Positions 2,071 through 49,671 of a DNA stretch of 64,000 nucleotides are shown here, piece by piece. The stretch is from Sedimentisphaerales bacterium (lineage in GTDB: Bacteria > Planctomycetota > Phycisphaerae > Sedimentisphaerales > SG8-4): assembly GCA_016928975.1 (NCBI GenBank), contig JAFGJR010000182.1, positions 10,463-74,462 on the forward strand. The letters run 5' to 3'. How positions within the stretch are numbered: the stretch's first letter is position 1; each line of letters begins with the position of its first letter. Position numbers and translations under genes: made by a program. The notes under the pieces were generated by a model, which worked only from the letters and a program-made list of their open reading frames with translations, did not search any database and was not told where the DNA came from.

Positions 2071-3912
2071 TCATGGCTCGCGGTCAGGGTCCTTCCAACG
2101 CTCCCCCAGCGGAACGGTTTCGCCGACACCGGGAGGCGACCAGGGCGACAGCTTGTTGCCGGCGACTGCCAGCCATACCATGGACGGGGACTCCAGGGGC
2201 TCGGAGAAGGCAAACACCAGGGTCTTGGGGAGGTTGGCTGAATCCACCTGAGAGATCGTGACGGTCATGCCGTCCAGCTCGATTCGGTCGCCCACACACA
2301 GAGGTCGTCTGCGTCCTCGTTCCAGTTGGATCGGAATCCCGCTTGTCCTTTCGATCTGGAGGCGGTAAGGATCCAGTCGCGTGCAGCGCGTGGCCTCACG
2401 TTCGTGGGCGAAGTATCCGGGCGCCAGGGCCCACACGTGAGCGGGCAAGGGTTGACCCGCCAGGGCCAGGTGGATCTGTAGATAACTCGCATACGACGCG
2501 TGCGGCGGGCTGGGGAAGATGATGGTCTTTCCGGCGAGGTCCGGCAGGACGGCAACACGGGCGAGTAGATCGTCGCGGTTGGCCAGTGCTTCGCTGAATT
2601 TCCAGTGGGAGATGAAGAAGCTGACGGGCGAACAGATGAAATGAAAAGAAACAAGGGCGGACAATACGATCCGGCCCGGCCAGGGATTGGACACTTGCGC
2701 GGAACGTTTCCATTGCCGGGCCAAGACATTCAAGAGCATCGCCAGCAGGCCAATGCCGCCGATGCCGACGTACTCCAGCATGCGGTTGGTCACCATTCCC
2801 ATACAGGCGGGCACGGTGGCCAGAAGCATCCCTGCAAAGAAGAACCGCGCAGTACGCTCGGTCTTCAACAGCGGCACGAGGAAGTAAAGGAGCACGGCGA
2901 GCCAGATCACCGCCGCGAACCAGAAGATGTGGCGCCCGGCAGGGGTCAATAGCCAAACCGTCTCTGCGGGAGGGAAGCCCCATTGGCCAAAGAGCAGGAT
3001 CGGCCCTCTTTCGAACACGGCTCTCAGGGCAGAGAGCGGCGAGCCTGCTGGGTCGGTGTAGAATCTGGAGTCGCTGACGCCGAGACCCAACGCACGATAG
3101 CTGGTCTGCCAAAGGAGGGCGGTCAGAGCGTAGGGCATCAGGCTCCAGGCTCTGGATTTCGTGCCCCCCGTGTCCATGAAAAGCGCATAGGCAAACAGGT
3201 AGGCGCAGATTCCGATGGCGGATTCCTTGCTCAACAAGGCCAGGCCAAACGCCGCAGTGCTGAGGAAGGCCCACGGCCAGGCTCTTTTCCTGCGCCAGAC
3301 ATCATGCAGGAGCAGAGAGACGACCGCAAACGTCGCCCCGATGACCGTATTGCGCGACGCAATCCAGCAGGCCGGTAAGGCATGAGCGTCATCGATGGCG
3401 AAAAGGAAGGCCGCCAGTCCTGCCACCCACGCAATCGGTATCATGCGACGATACAGGATCGCTATGCAGAACGTCCACGCGCCATACCAGAGTATATTGT
3501 GCAGATGCATGAGTGACGCGTCCTTCGGCCATAGAGCGAAATCCAGCCGGTGAGTGAGATTGCTCACCGGTCTCAAGAACGACAGCCGGAAGTCTGGACA
3601 AGACCACCACGGAAGCAAGCCGAGATTCATCATGCGCCTGGTTCTCTCGGGGTCGCCATCCGCCACCAGGTTGAATGCCCCTGGCTTCTGGAAAATCCGT
3701 TCCAATCCCGGCGGGCGCTCCATGGCGCAACGATACCAGAGATCATCGCCTTGGAGCCCGGAGCGAAGAGAGGGCAGCGCCATGGCCATGGCGAGAAGGG
3801 CCGCGATCAGGGGGAAAAGCCTGTGACTGAGGATTCCTGAGCAGAAATGGAGGGCGGTGTACCCGCGACCTGTGCCCACCGTCAGAATGGACGTTTCTGC
3901 CATTTCTACCAT
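2071..3912 (-). CDS. Polytopic membrane protein, possible GT-C type glycosyltransferase
   Basis: The protein is about 613 residues. Roughly ten hydrophobic helices fill residues 25-450, and a soluble C-terminal region of about 150 residues follows. After the first helix, a loop carries GLQGDDLWYR; an acidic pair after helix 1 is typical of GT-C enzymes that use lipid-linked sugars (PMT/ArnT/O-antigen-type). No closer family is recognised. The start is uncertain: MVEMAETS at 3912 (or the second ATG at 3903) sits just ahead of the first hydrophobic segment, and the frame stays open upstream to 4017 with unlikely sequence. It is transcribed ahead of the GT2 gene and diverges from the polysaccharide-export operon, so a role in glycan assembly is inferred from context. 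Confidence 0.6.
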   Translation of the reverse strand: MVEMAETSILTVGTGRGYTALHFCSGILSHRLFPLIAALLAMAMALPSLRSGLQGDDLWYRCAMERPPGLERIFQKPGAFNLVADGDPERTRRMMNLGLLPWWSCPDFRLSFLRPVSNLTHRLDFALWPKDASLMHLHNILWYGAWTFCIAILYRRMIPIAWVAGLAAFLFAIDDAHALPACWIASRNTVIGATFAVVSLLLHDVWRRKRAWPWAFLSTAAFGLALLSKESAIGICAYLFAYALFMDTGGTKSRAWSLMPYALTALLWQTSYRALGLGVSDSRFYTDPAGSPLSALRAVFERGPILLFGQWGFPPAETVWLLTPAGRHIFWFAAVIWLAVLLYFLVPLLKTERTARFFFAGMLLATVPACMGMVTNRMLEYVGIGGIGLLAMLLNVLARQWKRSAQVSNPWPGRIVLSALVSFHFICSPVSFFISHWKFSEALANRDDLLARVAVLPDLAGKTIIFPSPPHASYASYLQIHLALAGQPLPAHVWALAPGYFAHEREATRCTRLDPYRLQIERTSGIPIQLERGRRRPLCVGDRIELDGMTVTISQVDSANLPKTLVFAFSEPLESPSMVWLAVAGNKLSPWSPPGVGETVPLGERWKDPDREP

Positions 3913-4352: not shown

Positions 4353-6176
4353 ATGGGTAGCATTCGCAGAGTGCCGGTAGTTTTGGCCGTGATCGGCTTG
4401 AGCTTTGCAGGATGCGACAACAAGCTCCTCGACCCCACGCAGGTGGGTCGATTCCGGCCCACGCCGGCGGTGAATGTCATCCTGGACTCGTTGGGTGTCG
4501 CGGAGGAAACGCCGGTAGCCTGGGAGAATGCGGAGGAGCCTCGTCCCAAGGACATCGTCGCCCAGAAGGGCGACTATGCCTTGCGGCCGGCCGACCTGGT
4601 GCAGATCTCGATCTACGAGCTGTTCCAGGAGGGAGTGCCGCTGGTCGGCCAGTTCCTCGTCTCGGAGACCGGTCACGTGTCGATCCCCGATGTCGGGCAC
4701 GTGCAAGCGGCGGGACTGACCGAGACCCAGTTGGAGGACGAGATCAAGCGGATGCTGTCGCCGAACATCCTGAAGGAACCGACGGTGACAGTGACTCTGG
4801 CGGACTCTCAGCAACGGACATTCTCCGTCATGGGCAATGGCGTGCCCCGGCCCGGACGGTTTCTCATTCCCCGCTACGATTTCCGGCTGACCGATGCGCT
4901 GGCCACCGCCGGTGGTCCCATGCAGTTCAATGTCAGCTACGTGTATCTGTCCCGAAAGGACGAGACGCAAGTCGCCTCCACCGCCCGACCGGCCGCAGTC
5001 ACGCCGGGCAAACCCACGGCGAGACCCGAACTCGAATTGCTCGGGCCGAGGTCGGGCCAGCCGAACGCACAGAAAAAGCAGACATCTCCAGAGCCCCAGC
5101 CTCTACCTTCTGTGGTTCCCGGCGGGCGATCCGAGATCCCGGAGCCCAGGGAGCCGGCCGAGAAATTCGAGCTGGAGCGGGAGATGCTCGACATGATCGC
5201 CCCATCTGCCGACAAGAGCAAATGGCCGACGAGCACGCGAGCGGTCCCGGCTGCCCCGGTGAGCCAGCCGAAGGACGAGGATGTCGCCGCGACGGTAATG
5301 CCGTACGGCTTCCAACTTCTCGTGCCCCCCAAAGCTACGCAGGACCGGCTCGCGCGGGCGCAGGATGTGGTCCAGACGCCGATGGTGCTGGCGGCCGAAC
5401 CGAACAAACCGGCACAGGCGACCTTGTCCGCGCCGAAAGAGGGGCAGAGATATGACTGGGTCTTCCGCGACGGCCAGTGGGTTCCGGTCCCGGTAAAACC
5501 CGGCGCGGAGCAGCGTCCAATACCCAAAGAAACCGGTCCAGGCGTACAGACGGAATGGGTCTTTCGCGATGGCCAGTGGGTCCAGATCCGCAAAGGAGAG
5601 ACTCCTGCGCCGACGCCGCCGGCAGTGGCGGCTCAGCCCCAGATCCGTCAACCGACGTTGCCGATCGGGGACGAGCAGTTGCCTCCGGAGGTCGAGTGGG
5701 AGCAGGCGGCGCAGACCCGCGTGCTGAGAATCCCCACCGACAAGCTCCTGGCCGGCGACCCTCGATACAATGTGGTCATCAGGCCGGGGGACACCCTGTA
5801 CGTGCCGGTTGACATCATTGGCGAGTTCTTCATAATGGGCAATGTCAATCGCAGCGGGGTGATCAATCTCACCGGTCGGCCGATGACGCTGAAGATGGCC
5901 ATAGCGGCCGCCGGCGGACTCGGACCTCTGGCTTGGCCCAAAACCGTCGAGGTGGTTCGACGCATCGGAAAGGAAAAGGAAGAGATCGTCATGGTGGACT
6001 TGGACAGGATCGCCGCGGGGGAGCAGCCCGATTTCTTCATCAAGCCGCATGACCTGATCAACGTCGGGACGCACCCCAGTGCTCGCTGGCGCGCCGTCCT
6101 GCGCAACGCCTTCCGGGCGGCCTACGGCTTCGGATTCGTCTACGACCGGAACTTCGTTGACGTGGACTTTCTATGA
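4353..6176 (+). CDS. Polysaccharide export outer-membrane lipoprotein, Wza/BexD-like
   Basis: The 607-residue protein begins with a lipoprotein signal (hydrophobic stretch ending in LSFAGC, lipidated cysteine near residue 22). Residues 70-150 form a polysaccharide-export domain (YALRPADLVQISIYELF ... VGQFLVSETGHVSIPDVG), followed by an SLBB segment (VMGNGVPRPGRFLIPRYDFRLTDALATAGG). A long proline-rich insert of about 230 residues follows, with a twice-repeated WVFRDGQWV motif, and then a second SLBB-like domain near residues 470-560. It would form the periplasmic/outer-membrane exit channel working with the Wzc-like protein encoded downstream. The insert is unusual for the family and carries the internal repeat. 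AAGGGGTG stands nine bases before the start. Confidence 0.88.
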   Translation: MGSIRRVPVVLAVIGLSFAGCDNKLLDPTQVGRFRPTPAVNVILDSLGVAEETPVAWENAEEPRPKDIVAQKGDYALRPADLVQISIYELFQEGVPLVGQFLVSETGHVSIPDVGHVQAAGLTETQLEDEIKRMLSPNILKEPTVTVTLADSQQRTFSVMGNGVPRPGRFLIPRYDFRLTDALATAGGPMQFNVSYVYLSRKDETQVASTARPAAVTPGKPTARPELELLGPRSGQPNAQKKQTSPEPQPLPSVVPGGRSEIPEPREPAEKFELEREMLDMIAPSADKSKWPTSTRAVPAAPVSQPKDEDVAATVMPYGFQLLVPPKATQDRLARAQDVVQTPMVLAAEPNKPAQATLSAPKEGQRYDWVFRDGQWVPVPVKPGAEQRPIPKETGPGVQTEWVFRDGQWVQIRKGETPAPTPPAVAAQPQIRQPTLPIGDEQLPPEVEWEQAAQTRVLRIPTDKLLAGDPRYNVVIRPGDTLYVPVDIIGEFFIMGNVNRSGVINLTGRPMTLKMAIAAAGGLGPLAWPKTVEVVRRIGKEKEEIVMVDLDRIAAGEQPDFFIKPHDLINVGTHPSARWRAVLRNAFRAAYGFGFVYDRNFVDVDFL

Positions 6177-21870: not shown

Positions 21871-23883
21871 ATGAAGATTTCTCTCAATTGGTTGAGCGAT
21901 TACGTGCAAACCGGCCTGCAGGCGGAGCAGATCGCGGAGATTCTGAGCAATCTGGGCCTGCCGTGCGAGGGGATCGAGCACTTGGCCGACGACTCGGTCA
22001 TCGACGTGGAAGTAACGAGCAATCGCGGCGATTGCCTCAGTCACATCGGCATCGCCAGGGAGCTGGCGGCCGCCACAGGCAAGCCGCTGAGCCTGCCCGC
22101 GATCGACTTCCCGGAGACGGACAAGCCCGCCTCCGACTTCGTTCAGGTGGAGATTCGCGAGCCGGACCTGTGCAAGCGATACACCGCCCGCGTCATCGAG
22201 GGCGTCAAGATCGGCCCGTCGCCCGAGTGGATGCAGAAGCGTCTCGAAGCGGTCGGCATGCGGCCCGTCAGCAACGTCGTCGACGCCACGAACTACGCGA
22301 TGATGGAGACCGGCCAGCCTCCGCATGCGTTCGACTTCGCCACGATTGAGGGACGCCGGATCATCGTTCGCAAAGCGGCGCCCGGCGAGCAGATCGTCAG
22401 TATCGACGGCACCCAGTGCGCCCTGGCGCCCGAGATGCTCGTCATCGCCGATGCGCAACGGCCCGTGGCGGTCGCCGGTATCATGGGCGGCCTGGCCACC
22501 GAAGTCAATGACGCCACGACGACGATCCTTCTGGAGGATGCCTACTTCGATCCCGTCTGCATCCGGACGACGTCGCGCCGGCTGGCGCTGCCGTCGGAGG
22601 CGTCGTTCCGGTTCGAGCGGATTGTGGATATCGAGAGGATGGATTGGGCGTCGCGCCGGACCACGCAACTGATCGTGCAATTGTCGGGCGGCCGGGTCGC
22701 CAAAGGATTCGTGGACGCCTATCCGCGAAAGCCCCAGCCGCTCCAGGTGACGATGAGGTTGTCCCGCGTGAGCGCGCTGCTGGGCATCGAGGTGCCGACG
22801 GAGCAGGTGATGAAGATCCTGGCGGCGCTGTGCTTCGAGCCCCGGTTGCACGACGGCTCGGTCCTCTGCTCGGTCCCCGGTTGGCGGAGCGACATCAGCC
22901 GGGAGGTGGACCTGATCGAGGAGGTGGCCCGCGTGCACGGCTACGACAAGGTGCCGACTCGCAGGAAGATCCAGATCGAGGCGGTACCCGCCGATCCCCG
23001 CCATTCGATGCAAGAGCACATCGGCACGTTGCTCAACGGCTGCGGCTTCTACGAGACGATCACCGTCGATTTCGTGGACCAGGGCGTCGCGGACCTGTTC
23101 TCGCCGGGCGGTTCTCGGCCGTACCTGGCAGCGCGGCAGACCGCGAGAAGAGAGGCCGGCATTCTCCGCCGCACGCTGCTGGGCTCGCTGCTCGAAGTCC
23201 TCAAGACGAACGTCAACGCGAAGAACCTGCCGTGCCAGGTGTACGAGATCGCCGACACGTTCATCCCCCCCGACGAACGCAATTCCCTGCCGGTTGAGCG
23301 GTCGAAGCTGGGACTGGTGGTCGATGCCGACTTCCGCCTGCTGCGCGGCGCCATCGAGGGCCTCATCGAGAGTCTCAATCGCAACGCGAAAGTGGAGTTC
23401 GCACCCGCTGAGTTCGCGTGGGCGGAAGCAGGGGCGCGCGTACTCGTCGATGGGAAGGAGATCGGCCAGGCCGGCGTATTTTCCGAAGCTGTCCGCCGCA
23501 AGCTCGACTTCAAGGACCTGACCCCGTGCGGCGCCGAGCTGGACTTCGACGACCTGATGGCCCTCAAGTCCGGCCCGGTCAAGATCCGTCCGATCCCGCG
23601 ATTCCCGGCCATCGACCGCGACCTGTCCATTGTCGTCACGGATACGACCCGCTGGTCCCAGATCGCCGCCACGGTCCAGAGCGCCGCCCCCGTTGAGCTG
23701 GAGACCGTCCAGTTCGTCGATATCTATCACGGCAAGGGAATCCCGGCAGGCAAGAAGAGCCTGACCCTGTCCCTGCGCTTCCGCGACGAAGACGGGACGC
23801 TGACCCACGAGACCGTGGACGCCTACCAGGCCAAGATCCTCGAAAGCCTGAAGAGCGTCGTCGCCGCCGAGTTGCGGACATAG
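21871..23883 (+). CDS. pheT: Phenylalanine-tRNA ligase beta subunit lacking the N-terminal tRNA-binding domain
   Basis: The 670-residue protein opens with MKISLNWLSDYVQ, the usual PheT beginning. It continues through the B3/B4 editing domain (ARVIEGVKIGPSP ... VVDATNYAMMETGQPPHAFD, AGIMGG), the B5 domain (MRLSRVSALLGIEVPTEQV), the catalytic-like core and a C-terminal FDX-ACB anticodon-binding domain (IPRFPAIDRDLSIVVTDTT). Typical bacterial PheT is close to 800 residues because an EMAP/OB-type tRNA-binding domain of 110-120 residues follows the first 40. Here GIEHLADDSVIDVEVTSNRGDCLSH follows immediately, so that domain is absent. No pheS is adjacent. It should still charge tRNA-Phe together with PheS. 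The start is fixed by homology. Confidence 0.9.
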   Translation: MKISLNWLSDYVQTGLQAEQIAEILSNLGLPCEGIEHLADDSVIDVEVTSNRGDCLSHIGIARELAAATGKPLSLPAIDFPETDKPASDFVQVEIREPDLCKRYTARVIEGVKIGPSPEWMQKRLEAVGMRPVSNVVDATNYAMMETGQPPHAFDFATIEGRRIIVRKAAPGEQIVSIDGTQCALAPEMLVIADAQRPVAVAGIMGGLATEVNDATTTILLEDAYFDPVCIRTTSRRLALPSEASFRFERIVDIERMDWASRRTTQLIVQLSGGRVAKGFVDAYPRKPQPLQVTMRLSRVSALLGIEVPTEQVMKILAALCFEPRLHDGSVLCSVPGWRSDISREVDLIEEVARVHGYDKVPTRRKIQIEAVPADPRHSMQEHIGTLLNGCGFYETITVDFVDQGVADLFSPGGSRPYLAARQTARREAGILRRTLLGSLLEVLKTNVNAKNLPCQVYEIADTFIPPDERNSLPVERSKLGLVVDADFRLLRGAIEGLIESLNRNAKVEFAPAEFAWAEAGARVLVDGKEIGQAGVFSEAVRRKLDFKDLTPCGAELDFDDLMALKSGPVKIRPIPRFPAIDRDLSIVVTDTTRWSQIAATVQSAAPVELETVQFVDIYHGKGIPAGKKSLTLSLRFRDEDGTLTHETVDAYQAKILESLKSVVAAELRT

Positions 23884-24066
23884 TCACCGCTTCCCAGGCC
23901 CACGCCCGGGAGAATTGGCTTTGTTTGCGCGCCTGGCCTTTTGCGGTGATGCCGCAACGCGTTTCCGCGCCGGACCATCCCGACCCCGGCTTCGGCGTTT
24001 GGCTTTGTTCTACATATCCGGCCCCTCCAAATTGGCTTTGTTTCGCACGACCCGGCCATGTCCCAT

Positions 24067-24114
24067 GTAGCCCAGCCGCCCTCGGCTGGGATCACCCCCG
24101 GGGCGGGCGTGCCA
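24067..24114. repeat. Double-hairpin interspersed element (same family as in hisA)
   Basis: It starts GTAGCCCAGCC and contains the hairpin CCCAGCCG-CCCT-CGGCTGGG followed by a second GC-rich hairpin around CACCCCCGGGGCGGG. Compare 24473-24521, 37331-37388 and 37587-37644. Confidence 0.75.
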
Positions 24115-24178
24115 CCTGGGACTTCCCCCGATTGGGTTTGTCTGACAAAATGGCAGTTGTCCGCAGCGACGTCTTCTT

Positions 24179-24206
24179 GTAGAGACGCAAGATCTTGCGT
24201 CTCCAC
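24179..24206. repeat. 28-bp palindrome, copy 1
   Basis: The left arm GTAGAGACGCAAGA is followed directly by its reverse complement with one mismatch (CTCC for CTCT near the right end). Related copies lie at 24314-24341, 39586-39613 and 49552-49579. Confidence 0.8.
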
Positions 24207-24313
24207 GAATGTCCCGCCAGCCACGGCACGGGGCTCGCTGCACCGATTGGCTCGGCCATCGTTCAGCGGTTGGCTTTGTTTGGCGCAGCCGGGGTCGTTC
24301 ACGGCCTTGCTTT

Positions 24314-24341
24314 GCGCAGACGCAAGATCTTGCGCCTCTAC
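24314..24341. repeat. 28-bp palindrome, copy 2
   Basis: This is a diverged copy: the core GACGCAAGATCTTGCG is intact and the right end reads CCTCTAC. Confidence 0.75.
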
Positions 24342-24472
24342 GGTCACCTGCCATTGGCGTTGGCTGGCAGATTCCACCTTGCCGGTAGACGGCGGCACAC
24401 TCAAAGCTCTTTCTCCAAGCACCCCATCCCTCCCAGATTTGGCTTTGTTTCGCATGTCGCATTAGCCCCCAT

Positions 24473-24521
24473 GTGGCCTAGTCCCCTCGCTTGGGATCGC
24501 CCCGGCGGGTGGAGGTGCTAC
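24473..24521. repeat. Double-hairpin interspersed element, degenerate copy
   Basis: It begins GTGGCCTAG and ends GGTGCTAC, with a decayed first hairpin (CCCTCGCTTGGG) and a second one (GCCCCGGCGGG). It belongs to the family found twice in hisA. Confidence 0.6.
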
Positions 24522-25008
24522 TTGAAACGTCACACTTCAAACTTGACACATCCTCTAATTGGCTTTGTTTCGCGTGCCCACGGACCGGGGATGTTATATC
24601 CCCGGACCCCTGGCATTTTGCGCCTTGTGCCAATGGCATGATGGGGTAACTTGATGTCGCCGGCAAATGCGTCACGATGTGGGCTCGCTATTCCATTGAG
24701 ACTCCAGCTCAATCGTTGCGTATACATCATACACCAAGCACCTTTTTCTGTCAAGAAAAATCCGGGAAATGGAGAGATTCTCACGCCCGCAGGGCCGGAC
24801 ACAAACCCTCGTCCTCAAATGACTTACAACTGCCGGCCCCGACAGCCAAGAACGGCCAGCGACAATTGGGCCACCGAGGTCCCCGGGACACAGAGGAAGA
24901 GCCCGCCAACGATGTCAACTCGCCGGATCACGCTTTTTCACTGTGGTTGGGCGGGTGCTACTGTGGTAGAATCGGCGTCGTAGACGTGGCTGTCGTAGGG
25001 GAGTTCTT

Positions 25009-28000
25009 ATGCACCAGAACGATGACCATACCGGACGAGAGGATGAGGATGGCGCTCGGACCCTGGATGCGGGCAAGCTGCTCGGCAACCTGCTCTATGG
25101 GATCGGCAGCACCATCGGGAGCTATAAGCTCCTGAGAATCCTGGGCGAGGGAGGTTTTGGGGTCGTCTATCTGGCGGAGCAGCAACGGCCGATCAAACGC
25201 CAGGTGGCGCTCAAGGTCATCAAGCCCGGCATGGATTCGGCGCAGGTCATCCGCCGCTTTGAAGCGGAGAGGCAGGCGCTGGCCCTACTCGATCATCCCA
25301 ATGTTGCTCACGTGTATGACGCCGGCACGACGGAAGCGGGCCGGCCGTACTTTGCGATGGAGTACGTCAAGGGCGTGCCTATCACCGAGCACTGCGACCG
25401 TCAGAAGCTTACCATTGAGGAGCGTCTGAAGCTCTTTGTGCAGGTCTGTGAGGCCATCCAGCATGCGCATCAGAAGGGCATTATCCACCGCGATATCAAG
25501 CCTTCGAACATCCAGGTGTGCATTCAAGACGAGCAGGCTATCCCGAAGGTGATTGACTTTGGAGTGGCCAAGGCCCTCAGTCAGCCGTTGACCGAGCGCA
25601 CACTGGTGACCGAGCAAGGTCAACTGATCGGTACGCCCGAGTACATCAGTCCGGAGCAGGCGGAGATGACGAACCAGGATATCGACACCCGCTCGGACAT
25701 TTATTCGCTGGGAGTGCTCCTATATGAACTCTTGACCGGGACCTTGCCTTTCGAGTCCGAGACACTCAGGCGAGGCAGTCTGGATCAGATGCGTCAGATG
25801 ATCCGGGAGACTGAGCCCAAGACTCCGAGCACCCGTGTCAGCACCTTGGATGCGGAGATCTTAACCAGAGTGGCCAAGTGCTGTCAAAGTGATGTCGCTA
25901 CCCTGCAACGCAGACTCCATGGCGACCTGGACTGGATCACGCTCAAGGCGATGGAGAAGGACCGAATGCGGCGGTATCAGACGGCGCATGCTCTCGCCGA
26001 GGACATCCAGCGGCACCTGAGCAATGAGCCGGTACTGGCCGGCCGGCCCGGCACGCTCTATCGGTTCCAGAAACTGGTCCGGCGGAACCAGGGGGTTTTT
26101 GCTGCGGCCGTCGCCGTCGCCGTGGTCCTGTTGCTGGGAGTGGTTGTGAGCTCTTGGCAGGCGCTTCGGGCACGACGCGCGGAGCAGACAGCCACCGCGA
26201 AGTCCGTAGTCGCAGAGACACAGCGCCAACGCGCGGAGGCCAAGGAGCTGGCCATGCGCCAACTCGCCTACGCCTCCGATATGAGCCTGGCGCAGCAGGC
26301 GCTTGCGACGAACGATTTGGGGCGTGCACTCCGGTTGCTGAACGACCATCGACCTGCGCTCGGCAAGGTCGATCTGCGTGATTGGGAGTGGCGCTACCTT
26401 TGGCAGGAGTGTCGTAGCGATGCTGTCAGTGAGTTGTGCCGCTATCCGAACTCTGCCTACTCGGTTGCTTACTCCCCCGACGGCAAGGCTCTCGGCGTGG
26501 CCGGCCAGATTCAAGAATTCGTCGAGATTTGGGATGTGCCCAGCCGCAGACGAATTAAGACCATACAACCGAAGGAAGGCCACCTCGTGGCCTTCTCGCC
26601 ACGAGGCGATCTGTTGGCGACTGATGCCGGAAACCGTATCCGACTCTGGCGGGCCGACACTTGGGATTCTGTCACTGAACGTACTCTCGATGGTGAGGTC
26701 GCGTTTCTTAAGTTCTCGCCCGATGGAAGCCGGCTGGCTGCGATGGTCATTCCGGATGAAATCATCGTATGGGAGCTTGACCAATGGCGCGTGGTTTGTC
26801 AAATCCATGATGTTGGGTGGTTCCGGTACTGGAACGGCGTGCTGGACTTTTCGCCGGATGGCACGGCCATTGTCATTGGTGTTGCCGATGGTCACCTTCA
26901 AGTGGTGGATCTCGCCAGAGGAAAGACGAGGTTCAACATTCCGGAGGCCCACCCGGAATCCATAGTGTCTGTAGCATGGTCTCCGGATGGTTCCATCATT
27001 GCCAGTGGCAGCGGTTGGTTAGGTGGTCCGATCAAATCTTGGGAGGCCGCCTCTGGCAGAGAATTGGAGCCACTCGAAGGACATACCTCATGGATTTCCG
27101 AACTGGTCTTCTCCACAGATGGTCAATGTTTGTATTCGGCCAGCGGTGACCAAACTGTCCGAATCTGGGATGTAGGGCAACACCAGTGTCTGGCCACCCT
27201 TCGTGGCAGCAGACATGAAGTCCTTGGACTGGCGCTTTCACCGGATGGCACCACACTTGCGAGCGGCTGTAAGGATGGTGTCGTTTCCTTTTGGAGTGCC
27301 CTGCCTCGCACCGATGAGAAACAACCCAGGCTAATCCGTCTGGGTCAGTATTCCTGGCCTGCCTTCGCTCCAGACGGCCGCATATTGGCGGTGCCTCGCA
27401 GGGGAACTGTCAGCCTGTTCGAGATGAGCACTCTCGGAGAAATCGAGCAACTGCACGAGCTGGGCACTGACGTTTCGATACTCGCATATTCACCGGATGG
27501 GACCCTCTTGGTAAGTGGAAACATGGATGGAACAATCCGTGTGTGGTCCTGTGCTGGGCGACGTCTGCTGCAAGAGCGGCACGAACACCAGAAAATGGTG
27601 CATTCGTTCCACTTCCGGCCGGATGGCAAGCAGTTGCTTTCTCTTGACGATGGTGGAAATGCTATCTGGTGGGACACCCTCACGTGGCAAGCCAGCCGAG
27701 TCTTCACGATGGAAATTTCTGACAGGGATCGTTTCTCGCAACCGGTGGCTGTTTCACCGGATGGAAGCCTCTTGGCGGCTATCACAAAAGAGGAGACTAT
27801 GCACTGGCTCAATGCCAAAACGGGAGAACTCATAAAAACTACATCACGCCCACCGGGCCCCTCATCTCTCAGAGCTAAGGTCGCCTTCTCCGGTGACGGC
27901 TCGAAGGTCGCCAGTGTCTCTACATACGGCACCGTGGCGCTGTGGGATCCGTCCTCATTCACACTGATCGAAGCCTTCAAGGGCCACATGTTAGGCGCCC

Positions 28001-29790: not shown

Positions 29791-29990
29791 TGCAAGCTGA
29801 CCCCTGCAGTGTTCGTGTGAAAGCGATAAGTTGAAGGAACCGATACCCGTACTGAGGGAGATCAGGCCTTGTCGGATCGGGGACGCCTGCTCGTCAGGAC
29901 CCTCGGACGCAAGCAACGATCACCCACCTAGAAGTAATGGGTTCCCTTCACGAGCTTTCATACGGCACAGGTGGAGGTGAGCTGCAGTAC
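29791..29990 (+). ncRNA. ssrS: Probable 6S RNA
   Basis: A transcript of about 200 nt lies between a near-consensus promoter and an intrinsic terminator, with no reading frame. Its ends pair (TGCAAGCT near 29800 with AGCTGCA near 29981). Then GTGTTCGTGTGAAAGC (around 29818) pairs with GCTTTCATACGGCAC (around 29955) with one bulge, and GAAGGAACC pairs with GGTTCCCTTC. The interior is GC-rich with CACCCACCTAGAAG followed by GGGTTCC, like the downstream strand of the 6S bubble. A long rod with an open middle and a length near 190 nt is the shape of 6S RNA, which binds sigma70-RNA polymerase. The assignment is by eye and not covariance-tested. Confidence 0.7.
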
Positions 29991-37056: not shown

Positions 37057-37857
37057 CTACTTCGCGGCGGCGAGGGCTTCTTTCAGAGTGAGGGTGCCTT
37101 CGTAGAGGCTTCGGCCGACGATCACGCCGGCGACGCCGATGGGCTTGAGCTTGCGGATATCATCGGCCTCTTTGACGCCACCGGAGGCGATGACGGGTGT
37201 TTTGACGGCCTTGACGAGAGTGCCGGTTCGCTCGATGTTCGGGCCGCAGAGCATGCCGTCCTTGCTGATATCGGTGTAGATGATGGCCGCCAGCGGCAGC
37301 TTGTCGGCCTGGGCGGCGAATTCGAGCACTGTGGCCCAGCCGCCCTCGGCTGGGACCGAGGGATCACCCCCGGGGGCGGGGGTGCTACAGAGCCAGGCGT
37401 GTGTAGCTACCGTGTCGCCACGTGCGTCCAGCCCGAGCACGATCTGACCACGGAATTCCTCTGCCATCCGGGTGAACCACTCGAAATCGTCCACCGCCTT
37501 TGTACCGATGATGACTCGTGTGACGCCCAGGTCCAGCAACTGTCGGATGGAGGCTTCGTCGCGGATGCCTCCGCCCACTTCGACCTGTAGCCCAGCCGCC
37601 CCCGGCTGGGAATCCGCCGTGCCCCCCGATGGCGGGGGGGCTACACTCGCGATCGCGGCGATCATTTCCGTGTTGACAGGCCGGCCTGCCTTGGCGCCGT
37701 CGAGGTCCACGACGTGAAGCCACGCAGCTCCGTCCGCGTGGAACTCGCGGGCCTGCTCGGCCGGGTCGTCCTTGTACGTGATCTGCCGGTCGTAGCGGCC
37801 CTGGATCAGCCGGACGCACTTGCCGTCCCGCAGGTCGATGGCGGGGATAATCTCCAT
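37057..37857 (-). CDS. hisA: Phosphoribosylformimino-AICAR ribotide isomerase with two in-frame repeat insertions
   Basis: The 266-residue TIM-barrel enzyme of histidine synthesis opens the sugar of ProFAR. Active-site elements are intact: AIDLRDGKCVRL, VEVGGGIRDEASI, VLGLDARGDTVATHAW, IIYTDISKDGML and VIASGGVKEADD. The usual length is near 245. The excess comes from two stretches of about 20 residues (VAPPPSGGTADSQPGAAG before the third strand, and CSTPAPGGDPSVPAEGGWA after THAW) encoded by copies of a 58-bp double-hairpin element. ATG 37857 follows AAGGGTG at a good distance. No other his gene is adjacent. The second insertion lies in the loop that in HisA covers the substrate, so activity may be affected. 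Confidence 0.92.
   Translation of the reverse strand: MEIIPAIDLRDGKCVRLIQGRYDRQITYKDDPAEQAREFHADGAAWLHVVDLDGAKAGRPVNTEMIAAIASVAPPPSGGTADSQPGAAGLQVEVGGGIRDEASIRQLLDLGVTRVIIGTKAVDDFEWFTRMAEEFRGQIVLGLDARGDTVATHAWLCSTPAPGGDPSVPAEGGWATVLEFAAQADKLPLAAIIYTDISKDGMLCGPNIERTGTLVKAVKTPVIASGGVKEADDIRKLKPIGVAGVIVGRSLYEGTLTLKEALAAAK
37331..37388. repeat. 58-bp double-hairpin element inserted in hisA, copy 1
   Basis: It runs from GTGGCCCAGCC to GGTGCTAC. First hairpin CCCAGCCG-CCCT-CGGCTGGG, second hairpin around CACCCCC-GGGGGCGGGGGTG. With two extra bases it adds 20 codons without breaking hisA. Confidence 0.85.
37587..37644. repeat. 58-bp double-hairpin element inserted in hisA, copy 2
   Basis: It runs from GTAGCCCAGCC to GGGGCTAC; the outer ends GTAGCCC and GGGCTAC are inverted repeats. 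First hairpin CCCAGCCG-CCCC-CGGCTGGG, second hairpin GCCCCCCGATGGCGGGGGGGC. Same length and orientation as copy 1, about 200 bases away. Confidence 0.85.
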
Positions 37858-39069: not shown

Positions 39070-40011
39070 ATCGCTGAGGATCGCGTCAAGCTCGTCGTGG
39101 TGGGCAGCTCCAACATGGACCTGGTGGTCAAGTCGCCCCGGATTCCGGTCCCGGGCGAGACGATCCTGGGCGGGGACTTCCTCATGGTCCCCGGCGGCAA
39201 GGGGGCGAACCAGGCCGTGGCGGCGGCCCGGCTGGGCGCACGCGTCTGCTTCGTGGCCCGGCTTGGCGACGATCTGTTCGGCCGCAAGTCCCTGGAGAAC
39301 TTCCAGCGAGAAGGGCTGGACACGACGTTCGTGACGCTGACCTCGCAGACGGCCTCTGGCGTCGCGCTCATCACAGTGGATGAGGTCGGCAACAACGCCA
39401 TCGTTGTGGCTCCCGGGGCCAATGCGAAGCTCTCCCCTGAAGATGTGTATCGTGCAGAGGCAGAGATCCGCTCGGCAGGGGCCGTGGTCGCGCAGCTCGA
39501 AGTGCCTATGGTCGCGGTCCAATGTGCGGCGGAACTGGCCGACGAAGCCGGCGTACCGTTCATCCTGAATCCCGCGCCGGCCCCGGTAGGGCCGCAAGAT
39601 CTTGCGTCTCTACAAACGCTGCTGGCCACAGTGGCGGTGCTGACGCCGAACGAAACGGAGGCCCAGATCCTGACCGGAGTGGAAGTGGTGGATGACGCTT
39701 CGGCCCGTGAAGCGGCCGAGAGGCTGCTCGGCACCGGTGTCAAGGCCGTGATTCTGACGATGGGCGTCAGGGGATTCCTGCTGGCTGCCGATGGCGCGAT
39801 GGAGTTTGTCCCGGCGTTGAAGGTCAAGGCGATCGATGCGACCGCGGCGGGGGACGCCTTCACAGGCAGCTTAGCCGTCAGCCTGGCCCAGGGCCGGACC
39901 CTCCGCGAGGCGGCTCTGTTTGCCAACCGCGTTGCGGCCCTGTGCGTGACCAGACTGGGCGCCCAGCCGTCGATGCCCACGAGAAAGCAAGTCGAGGAAT
40001 TCGCCGCGTAA
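39070..40011 (+). CDS. rbsK: Ribokinase (PfkB family) with in-frame palindrome insertion and unclear start codon
   Basis: The protein is about 313 residues and phosphorylates ribose to ribose-5-phosphate. PfkB signatures are present: VVGSSNMDLVVKSPRIPVPG, GGKGANQAVAAARLGA, LTPNETEA and DATAAGDAFTGSLAVSLAQG (catalytic Asp). There is no ATG, GTG or TTG between the upstream repeat and the conserved N-terminus. The codon placed correctly behind AAAGGG is ATC at 39070, and initiation there, or readthrough from an upstream codon inside the repeat, is possible. Bases 39586-39613 are a copy of a 28-bp palindrome that encodes GPQDLASLQT between two conserved segments. Gene symbol by context with the ABC genes. 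Confidence 0.85.
   Translation: MAEDRVKLVVVGSSNMDLVVKSPRIPVPGETILGGDFLMVPGGKGANQAVAAARLGARVCFVARLGDDLFGRKSLENFQREGLDTTFVTLTSQTASGVALITVDEVGNNAIVVAPGANAKLSPEDVYRAEAEIRSAGAVVAQLEVPMVAVQCAAELADEAGVPFILNPAPAPVGPQDLASLQTLLATVAVLTPNETEAQILTGVEVVDDASAREAAERLLGTGVKAVILTMGVRGFLLAADGAMEFVPALKVKAIDATAAGDAFTGSLAVSLAQGRTLREAALFANRVAALCVTRLGAQPSMPTRKQVEEFAA
39586..39613. repeat. 28-bp palindrome inside the ribokinase gene, copy 3
   Basis: The core CCGCAAGATCTTGCG and right arm TCTTGCGTCTCTAC match the intergenic copies; the left arm differs at two positions (GTAGGGCC). It is translated in frame. Confidence 0.85.
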
Positions 40012-49551: not shown

Positions 49552-49579
49552 GTGGAGACGCAAAATCTTGCGTCTCTAC
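49552..49579. repeat. 28-bp palindrome, copy 4
   Basis: Arms GTGGAGACGCAAAA and TCTTGCGTCTCTAC, two mismatches from the perfect palindrome. It lies in the 212-bp gap before mdh. Confidence 0.8.
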
Positions 49580-49671
49580 AGGAGATGCCCTTGCGGGCAC
49601 ACTGCGACCGGTGAGACGTGCGCTGGATTGTGACGCATGGGGCGTCAGGTACGATGGTTTGAGGGGCTGGG

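What the first reader, a model, noticed from the sequence alone, without database searches (positions are those of the whole stretch)
37331..37644. hisA carries two in-frame copies of a 58-bp palindromic element
HisA is a compact enzyme of about 245 residues; this one has 266, and the extra residues come from two copies of the same double-hairpin sequence (37331-37388 and 37587-37644), each adding about 20 codons without a stop or frameshift. Other copies of the family lie between genes at 24067-24114 and 24473-24521. This is the behaviour of Rickettsia palindromic elements, which enter protein genes and are tolerated at the surface, but I know of no such description for planctomycetes. Two copies in one essential-type enzyme is striking.
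Basis: partly seen in the sequence, partly recalled or inferred. Interest (0 to 1): 0.85.

Follow-up and report, generated by a model that had tools for sequence, protein, structure and literature searches.

The report
Palindromic repeats inside a histidine enzyme
In a planctomycete, two copies of a small dispersed DNA hairpin pair sit in frame inside a gene for histidine synthesis, and in related bacteria the same loops of this and other conserved enzymes appear to have been invaded repeatedly, so such repeats seem to be reshaping ordinary proteins.

Summary
hisA (minus strand, 37057-37857, 266 aa) carries two in-frame 60-nt copies of one double-hairpin element, at 37586-37645 and 37330-37389. 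The intergenic copy at 24066-24116 is good, that at 24472-24522 degenerate. Relatives' HisA is about 237 aa; net gain is 15 + 14 codons. The element is an inverted pair of GTAG-tagged REPs, dispersed in related Phycisphaerae MAGs. In three of them it flanks a gene passing NCBI's model for REP-associated tyrosine transposases (RAYT), the likely mover. So it is a GTAG REP dimer that behaves like a Rickettsia RPE. By a codon model, 30 of 123 sampled copy clusters lie in frame inside coding sequence, 3 out of frame. HisA site 1 and turns of two other enzymes carry different repeats in different relatives. HisA site 2 lies just after the conserved Trp of active-site loop 5. In-gene GTAG REPs were described in 2013. 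What looks new is recurrent, multi-family invasion of fixed turns; host-base loss was seen at five sites but not at five others. Recombination between alleles is not excluded.

The parts
37057..37857 (-). hisA, 266 aa (ATG start), phosphoribosylformimino-5-aminoimidazole carboxamide ribotide isomerase, carrying two in-frame elements
37586..37645 (-). element copy at HisA site 1 (residues ~71-91, SVAPPPSGGTADSQPGAAGLQ), between helix 63-70 and strand 91-95 of the model; REP-b first in the sense of hisA; 15 nt of host sequence missing
   Evidence: (70.6 bits)
37330..37389 (-). element copy at HisA site 2 (residues ~157-176, CSTPAPGGDPSVPAEGGWAT), two residues after the conserved Trp 155 of active-site loop 5; REP-b first in the sense of hisA; 18 nt of host sequence missing
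   Evidence: (78 bits)
24066..24116 (+). intergenic copy of the same element (REP-a first, short spacer)
   Evidence: 59.2 bits; between the pheT-like ORF ending at 23883 and the kinase-like ORF starting at 25009 (both names by eye)
24472..24522 (+). degenerate, doubtful copy
   Evidence: 20.2 bits, E 5e-4; no fold signal, z 0.27

Best explanation
The inserts are GTAG-tagged REP dimers (BIME/REPIN-like): two different hairpins, REP-a GTAGCCCAGCCGCCCTCGGCTGGG and REP-b GTAGCACCCCCGCCCTCGGGGGTG, facing each other with 3-13 unpaired bases between the helices in 20 aligned copies. They are most likely dispersed by a cognate RAYT, an HUH/Y1 single-strand endonuclease. Copies that land in genes survive only if the net length change keeps the frame, the reading frame avoids the TAG of the GTAG tag, and the site is a loop or turn that can hold a disordered, Pro/Gly/Ala-rich peptide. 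hisA has two such sites and this genome has a copy in each. Shown: identity of the element, dispersal in relatives, RAYT genes embedded in it in three relatives, in-frame bias, missing host bases at five of ten compared sites, recurrence at the same turns. Inferred: RAYT moves it, the enzyme stays active, host bases are lost at insertion.
For: Consensus with GT[AG]G tag at the REP-a foot in 20 of 20 copies and at the REP-b foot in 18 of 20; 97.8% of paired cells against 35-52% when the partner is slid. Dispersal: blastn hits in 5 of 7 related genomes; model hits at E<=1e-4 in 18 of 161 genomes of the order, 28-40 each in G002, G005, G006, G007, G077 and G079, with both strands sometimes counted and only 33 candidates scored per genome. 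RAYT: Y1_Tnp genes lie between element copies in G006, G007 and G077, are 73-95% identical to each other, score 91.8, 85.2 and 88.3 bits against a cut-off of 80 for NF047646 REP-associated tyrosine transposase, and relatives at E<=1e-20 occur in those 3 of 161 genomes only. In frame: 123 clusters = 30 same strand/same frame/open, 3 same strand/other frame, 33 coding on one side, 53 neither, 4 at an edge; if frame did not matter about one third of in-gene insertions would be in frame. TAG frame: closed in 16 of 20 and 11 of 20 copies by orientation, the other frames in 1-3 of 20. Genes: in 5 of 20 scanned ORFs the copy lies inside one Pfam match (encapsulin, protein kinase, CLP1_P, HemD, CcsA). 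Parts of both HisA inserts have pLDDT under 50 (81-86, 153-162, 168-174).
Against: The cognate RAYT was not found in five of the eight element-bearing genomes (G001, G002, G005, G079, G080) nor in the window; several of these assemblies are in hundreds of contigs, so absence is weak. PF01797 genes occur in 139 of 161 genomes, so their presence alone says nothing, and by that Pfam model two of the three RAYTs (G007, G077) score under or about the cut-off of 23 bits. As recalled from IS200/IS605 work, Y1 transposition neither duplicates nor deletes target bases, which does not fit the missing host bases. Copies are rarer in genes than random windows of the same loci by the same test (30 of 123 against 1078 of 2718). 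No activity, mobility or expression data exist here.
Confidence: 0.85

Rival explanations
1. One old insertion per site, then spread and loss by recombination or transfer of gene segments between species, rather than repeated insertion at the same turn.
For: Type-B inserts in two distant HisA groups are nearly the same peptide (P0004, P0012). A, B and D inserts share ends (A and most B begin ..VAP, nearly all end GL[QHRK]), as if later repeats were built into an older copy. Many branches of the tree are weak (56 of 116 open, 11 starred).
Against: In the cyclotransferase turn the element sits REP-a first in G002 and G005 but REP-b first in G006 and G077. At the alanyl-tRNA synthetase turn G079 and G006 carry other repeat peptides than G002. 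Parsimony on that weak tree needs at least 12 insert/no-insert changes at site 1 and 7 at site 2.
Confidence: 0.35
2. A member of the Rickettsia palindromic elements (RPE) or a direct relative.
Against: GTAG tags, REP-pair layout and embedded RAYT define it as a GTAG REP dimer; Di Nocera 2013 equates the intragenic CGTC-type repeats of R. conorii with RPE-4 and RPE-6.
Confidence: 0.03
3. Ordinary inherited loop insertions of low-complexity Pro/Gly/Ala peptide, with chance resemblance to intergenic palindromes.
For: The encoded peptides are low in complexity.
Against: The best full-length blastn matches in other genomes are 80-85% identical over 52-60 nt, hairpins and tags included; 82 of 120 homologs lack the residues at site 1 and 113 of 120 at site 2.
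Confidence: 0.02
4. Part of the apparent turnover is assembly chimerism between dispersed repeats in metagenome contigs.
For: P0002 and P0023 are 97.7% identical outside the sites but differ at site 2; many of the proteins come from short contigs.
Against: The hisA frame of the window is open through both sites; G002 shows the site-1 insert in an independent MAG; the same peptides recur in many clusters, some on long contigs, e.g. P0007 on 7.5 Mb.
Confidence: 0.1

Closest known systems
GTAG-tagged REP dimers / BIMEs / REPINs (Di Nocera et al. 2013, PMC3733652: abstract, section 15, passages; PMC8049555: abstract start and passages)
   Same: GTAG tag at the foot of each hairpin, inverted pairs, many dispersed copies, RAYT genes flanked by the repeats, in-gene dimers coding 20-30 aa, two dimers in one gene (O. 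terrae uvrA), different REPs at about the same site of recB in two Xanthomonas species
   Different: A sequence family in Phycisphaerae MAGs that I did not find described; two unlike hairpins per unit (E. coli too has unlike REPs, Y and Z, PMC6006769 passage); about a quarter of the sampled clusters lie inside genes; turns of HisA (site 1), glutaminyl-peptide cyclotransferase and AlaS carry several repeat families across relatives; 12-19 host bases missing at five of ten compared sites
RAYT / TnpA-REP (NF047646; TnpA-Y1 classes in PMC6006769, passages)
   Same: Y1-type genes above the curated NCBIfam cut-off, embedded in the repeats (REPtron-like)
   Different: Not assigned to a published subclass here; found in only 3 of the element-bearing genomes
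Rickettsia palindromic elements (RPE)
   Same: In-frame palindromic insertions in conserved genes
   Different: Different tag from the RPE-4/RPE-6 (CGTC) repeats; RAYT present; sequence kinship not examined

Membership tests
GTAG-tagged REP dimer (BIME/REPIN) | GTAG (or GTGG) tetranucleotide at the foot of the hairpin | tested here: met
   GT[AG]G at the REP-a end in 20 of 20 aligned copies and at the REP-b end in 18 of 20
GTAG-tagged REP dimer (BIME/REPIN) | 20-40 nt palindromes forming stem-loops, in inverted pairs | tested here: met
   Two 8-pair helices, 97.8% of cells paired, 2 pairs with changes on both sides; DNA folding of the hisA copies
GTAG-tagged REP dimer (BIME/REPIN) | Many dispersed copies, singles and pairs | tested here: met
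   (in relatives; the window's own genome is not held)
GTAG-tagged REP dimer (BIME/REPIN) | Cognate RAYT gene flanked by the repeats | tested here: met
   In G006, G007, G077; not found in the window nor in five other carriers
GTAG-tagged REP dimer (BIME/REPIN) | RAYT cleaves and mobilises the repeat | not testable with these tools
   Needs biochemistry
Rickettsia palindromic element | Sequence kinship with an RPE family | not tested
   No RPE sequence was fetched; an Rfam scan of the window found only 6S RNA
CGTC-tagged REPs (which include R. conorii RPE-4/RPE-6 in Di Nocera 2013) | CGTC tag at the hairpin foot | tested here: not met
   Tag is GT[AG]G

The most novel reading that the evidence does not exclude
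Fixed turns of conserved enzymes act as recurrent landing pads: several unrelated families of palindromic repeats enter the same turn again and again, often overwriting some 12-19 bases of host gene (and sometimes each other), by a replacement-type insertion unlike known Y1 transposition. In effect a running natural loop-grafting experiment on housekeeping proteins, including next to the active site of HisA.
Probability: 0.28. Interest if true: 0.8.

Novelty: new variant of a known kind. Interest (0 to 1): 0.65.

Why it matters
It links a selfish-type DNA element to visible change in core enzymes, with many natural before/after pairs. That makes directly testable how proteins accept new segments, which turns are permissive, and whether REP/RAYT systems can insert by replacing target bases. 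It also suggests that odd Pro/Gly/Ala-rich loops in such planctomycete proteins may be repeat-derived.

Tried and rejected
Presence of any Y1_Tnp gene as evidence: rejected, 139 of 161 genomes have one. The first HisA tree used misparsed states and is discarded; scripts 52 and 54 failed; one search is used. Rfam gave nothing for the element. Simple inheritance of low-complexity loops was rejected on nucleotide evidence. A shared 'ATCGAT' in one cyclotransferase copy and an empty site looked like retained host sequence, but a like spacer peptide occurs in HisA copies, so I dropped it. A microhomology rule at insertion sites was looked for by eye; nothing consistent was seen.

Five further filled sites gain as much as or more than the copy: CcsA of G079 (+28 codons against 23-24-residue relatives), AlaS of G002 (+18), cyclotransferase of G002 (+29), G006 (+34) and G005 (+43). 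Most hold further inserted sequence, so loss cannot be read there; the AlaS copy is degenerate.

Limits of the counts. The 140 element hits were listed by hand (one strand per place; weaker, short or duplicate hits left out) plus three window copies. One search covered 100 loci; of the loci fetched around element copies it left out L011, L012, L013, L016, L022, L027, L032, L036, L037 and L159. Loci were chosen from the best hits, so the sample favours well-kept copies. The codon model was trained on the same loci. 20 of 21 chosen ORFs went to Pfam, out of 34 hits with positive coding score; 4 of the 20 had no Pfam match. HisA and cyclotransferase homologs are the best 120 of about 8000 scored in each search; both queries carry an insert, which favours insert-bearing relatives. 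State A at HisA site 1 means any insert not recognised as B or D; one protein (P0009) counted as empty at site 2 has a partial match there. 25 of 120 cyclotransferase proteins and 11 of 33 cyclotransferase loci could not be parsed. Not used: one of three protein searches, one of two structure jobs, one of 12 genome searches, two of 10 paper searches.

Full report
What is in the window. hisA lies on the minus strand at 37057-37857 (ATG; 266 aa; Pfam His_biosynth). It holds two 60-nt copies of one double-hairpin sequence, 37586-37645 (site 1) and 37330-37389 (site 2), both in frame and without stops. A third good copy is intergenic at 24066-24116; the copy at 24472-24522 is degenerate. The window's genome is not held, so the rest of that genome could not be searched.

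Comparison with relatives. HisA of 16 genomes of the order was aligned by codon with the window's: 15 have 237 aa and neither insert; G002 has 251 aa and the site-1 insert only, whose DNA matches the window copy (blastn 82% over 60 nt). Where insert-free relatives read xLGLLK or similar before VEVGGG, the window reads the element; where they read EDSQQT or similar after the conserved Trp-Leu, it reads the second copy. Net gains are 45 and 42 nt for 60-nt copies, so 15 and 18 nt of host sequence are missing.

What the element is. Twenty copies from the window and relatives align to TGTAGCCCAGCCGCCCTCGGCTGGG - spacer - CACCCCCGAGGGCGGGGGTGCTACA: two hairpins in inverted order, each with a GT[AG]G tag at its foot (20 of 20 and 18 of 20 copies), 3-13 unpaired bases between the helices. 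Pairing is 97.8% of cells and 35-52% when slid. REP-a without a clear partner also occurs. A covariance model finds matches at E<=1e-4 in 18 of 161 genomes of the order; nine have a best E of 1e-14 or lower and six have 28-40 hits (33 candidates scored per genome, strands sometimes both counted).

The likely mover. In G006, G007 and G077 a Y1_Tnp gene lies between copies of this very element: L118:789-1241 with copies at 641-730 and 1241-1288; L139:653-1108 with copies at 529-621 and 1132-1192; L090:5332-5784 with copies at 5253-5307 and 5784-5873. All three pass NCBI's cut-off for REP-associated tyrosine transposase, though by Pfam's Y1_Tnp they are marginal (24.5, 21.8 and 22.6 bits, cut-off 23). 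At E<=1e-20 relatives of the G077 gene were found in these 3 of 161 genomes and in no other. They were not found in five other carriers or in the window. That RAYT moves REPs is from the literature (PMC3733652 abstract and passages; PMC6006769 passages), not shown here.

Copies inside genes. With a codon-usage model trained on the fetched loci, 123 clusters of copies were sorted by coding signal on both flanks: 30 are in one open frame across the copy, 3 are on one strand but out of frame, 33 have coding on one side, 53 on neither, 4 lie at an edge. Random 60-nt windows in the same loci: 1078 of 2718 in one frame, 20 in another frame, 23 on opposite strands, 835 coding on one side, 762 on neither; so genes hold fewer copies than random placement, but not many fewer. 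If frame did not matter, about two thirds of in-gene copies would be out of frame. The TAG in the tag closes one frame per orientation in most copies (16 of 20, 11 of 20); by eye the in-gene copies use the other frames. Pfam places copies inside the match to encapsulin, a protein kinase, CLP1_P, HemD and CcsA, and others between domains (20 ORFs scanned).

Hot turns. HisA site 1: among the best 120 homologs (the window's own included), 82 have no insert, 19 this element or a variant (A), 18 another repeat (B..WRGRPALASRGHPG..), 1 a third (D); site 2: 113 none, 5 this element, 2 a longer form that looks like one copy inside another. A tree without the insert columns needs at least 12 insert/no-insert changes at site 1, 14 A/B changes among insert-bearers and 7 at site 2 (quick tree, many weak branches). 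Some proteins 94-96% identical elsewhere differ in site-1 state, and P0002/P0023 (97.7%) differ at site 2. Glutaminyl-peptide cyclotransferase: the turn LNELEYV-YANVW holds this element REP-b first in G077 and G006 and REP-a first in G002 and G005 (there followed by more sequence), another insert in G079, and is empty (4 residues) in 17 of 22 loci that parsed, of 33; among 120 database homologs 17 are empty, 78 carry more than 6 residues and 25 could not be parsed. Alanyl-tRNA synthetase: the turn GDTGVI-FVVE holds a degenerate copy in G002, other repeat peptides in G079 and G006, other insertions in G001 and G008, and is short in six of the ten relatives shown. HemD and encapsulin of G079 carry the element where G005 is empty.

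Missing host bases. At five filled sites the net gain is smaller than the copy: HisA-1 60 nt for +45, HisA-2 60 for +42, cyclotransferase of G077 57 for +45, HemD 57 for +42, encapsulin 58 for +39, that is 15, 18, 12, 15 and 19 host bases missing. At five others it is not: CcsA of G079 +28 codons, AlaS of G002 +18, cyclotransferase of G002 +29, G006 +34 and G005 +43; most of these hold further inserted sequence. So the loss is frequent among simple single-copy cases, not a rule, and whether it happens at insertion or by later trimming is not known.

Relation to what is known. By the features testable here the element is a GTAG REP dimer. In-gene REP dimers, two dimers in one gene, and different REPs near one site in recB of two Xanthomonas species are in Di Nocera 2013 (section 15). 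Three searches naming Planctomycetes returned that paper alone or with PMC6006769; broader searches listed other papers, seen as titles and abstract starts only, none with a title on planctomycete in-gene REPs. The library holds open-licence papers only. New here, as far as those searches go: this family and its RAYT, the planctomycete proteins, the multi-family recurrence at fixed turns, and the missing host bases.

Noticed in passing
window 24179-24209, 24314-24344, 39586-39616, 49552-49582: A second palindromic family, GTAGAGACGCAAGATCTTGCGTCTCTAC-like, also with GTAG/CTAC-type ends; four copies, 77-100% identical to the reference copy.
   Followed up: no
window 24032, 24270, 24439, 24559: Four copies of a 24-nt repeat TTGGCTTTGTTT.. 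within 550 bp, interleaved with the palindromes, in the repeat-rich gap between the ORFs ending at 23883 and starting at 25009.
   Followed up: no
window 29798-29981: 6S RNA, 65.8 bits against a gathering score of 46.4.
   Followed up: no
L090:6127-7779 (G077) and L118 around 3646-3774 (G006): An ORF that looks by eye like a radical SAM protein carries two neighbouring element copies in frame in G077, and a like pair of copies in an open frame lies in G006.
   Followed up: partly
HisA homologs P0004, P0012, P0032 and others; cyclotransferase P0150, P0185 and others; L157, L134, L150: A second coding repeat (..WRGRPALASRGHPGLA..GQDALAT..) occupies the same turns; similar peptides are read from several other loci, G079 among them.
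   Followed up: partly
L240 (G079) and L241 (G006), alaS: Long repeat-derived inserts (..GQDARDTQGQDALAT....GRDAHATHRQDARAT..) in the same AlaS turn.
   Followed up: partly
P0010 and P0013 (HisA site 2): One element copy seems to be inserted inside another, replacing its middle.
   Followed up: no
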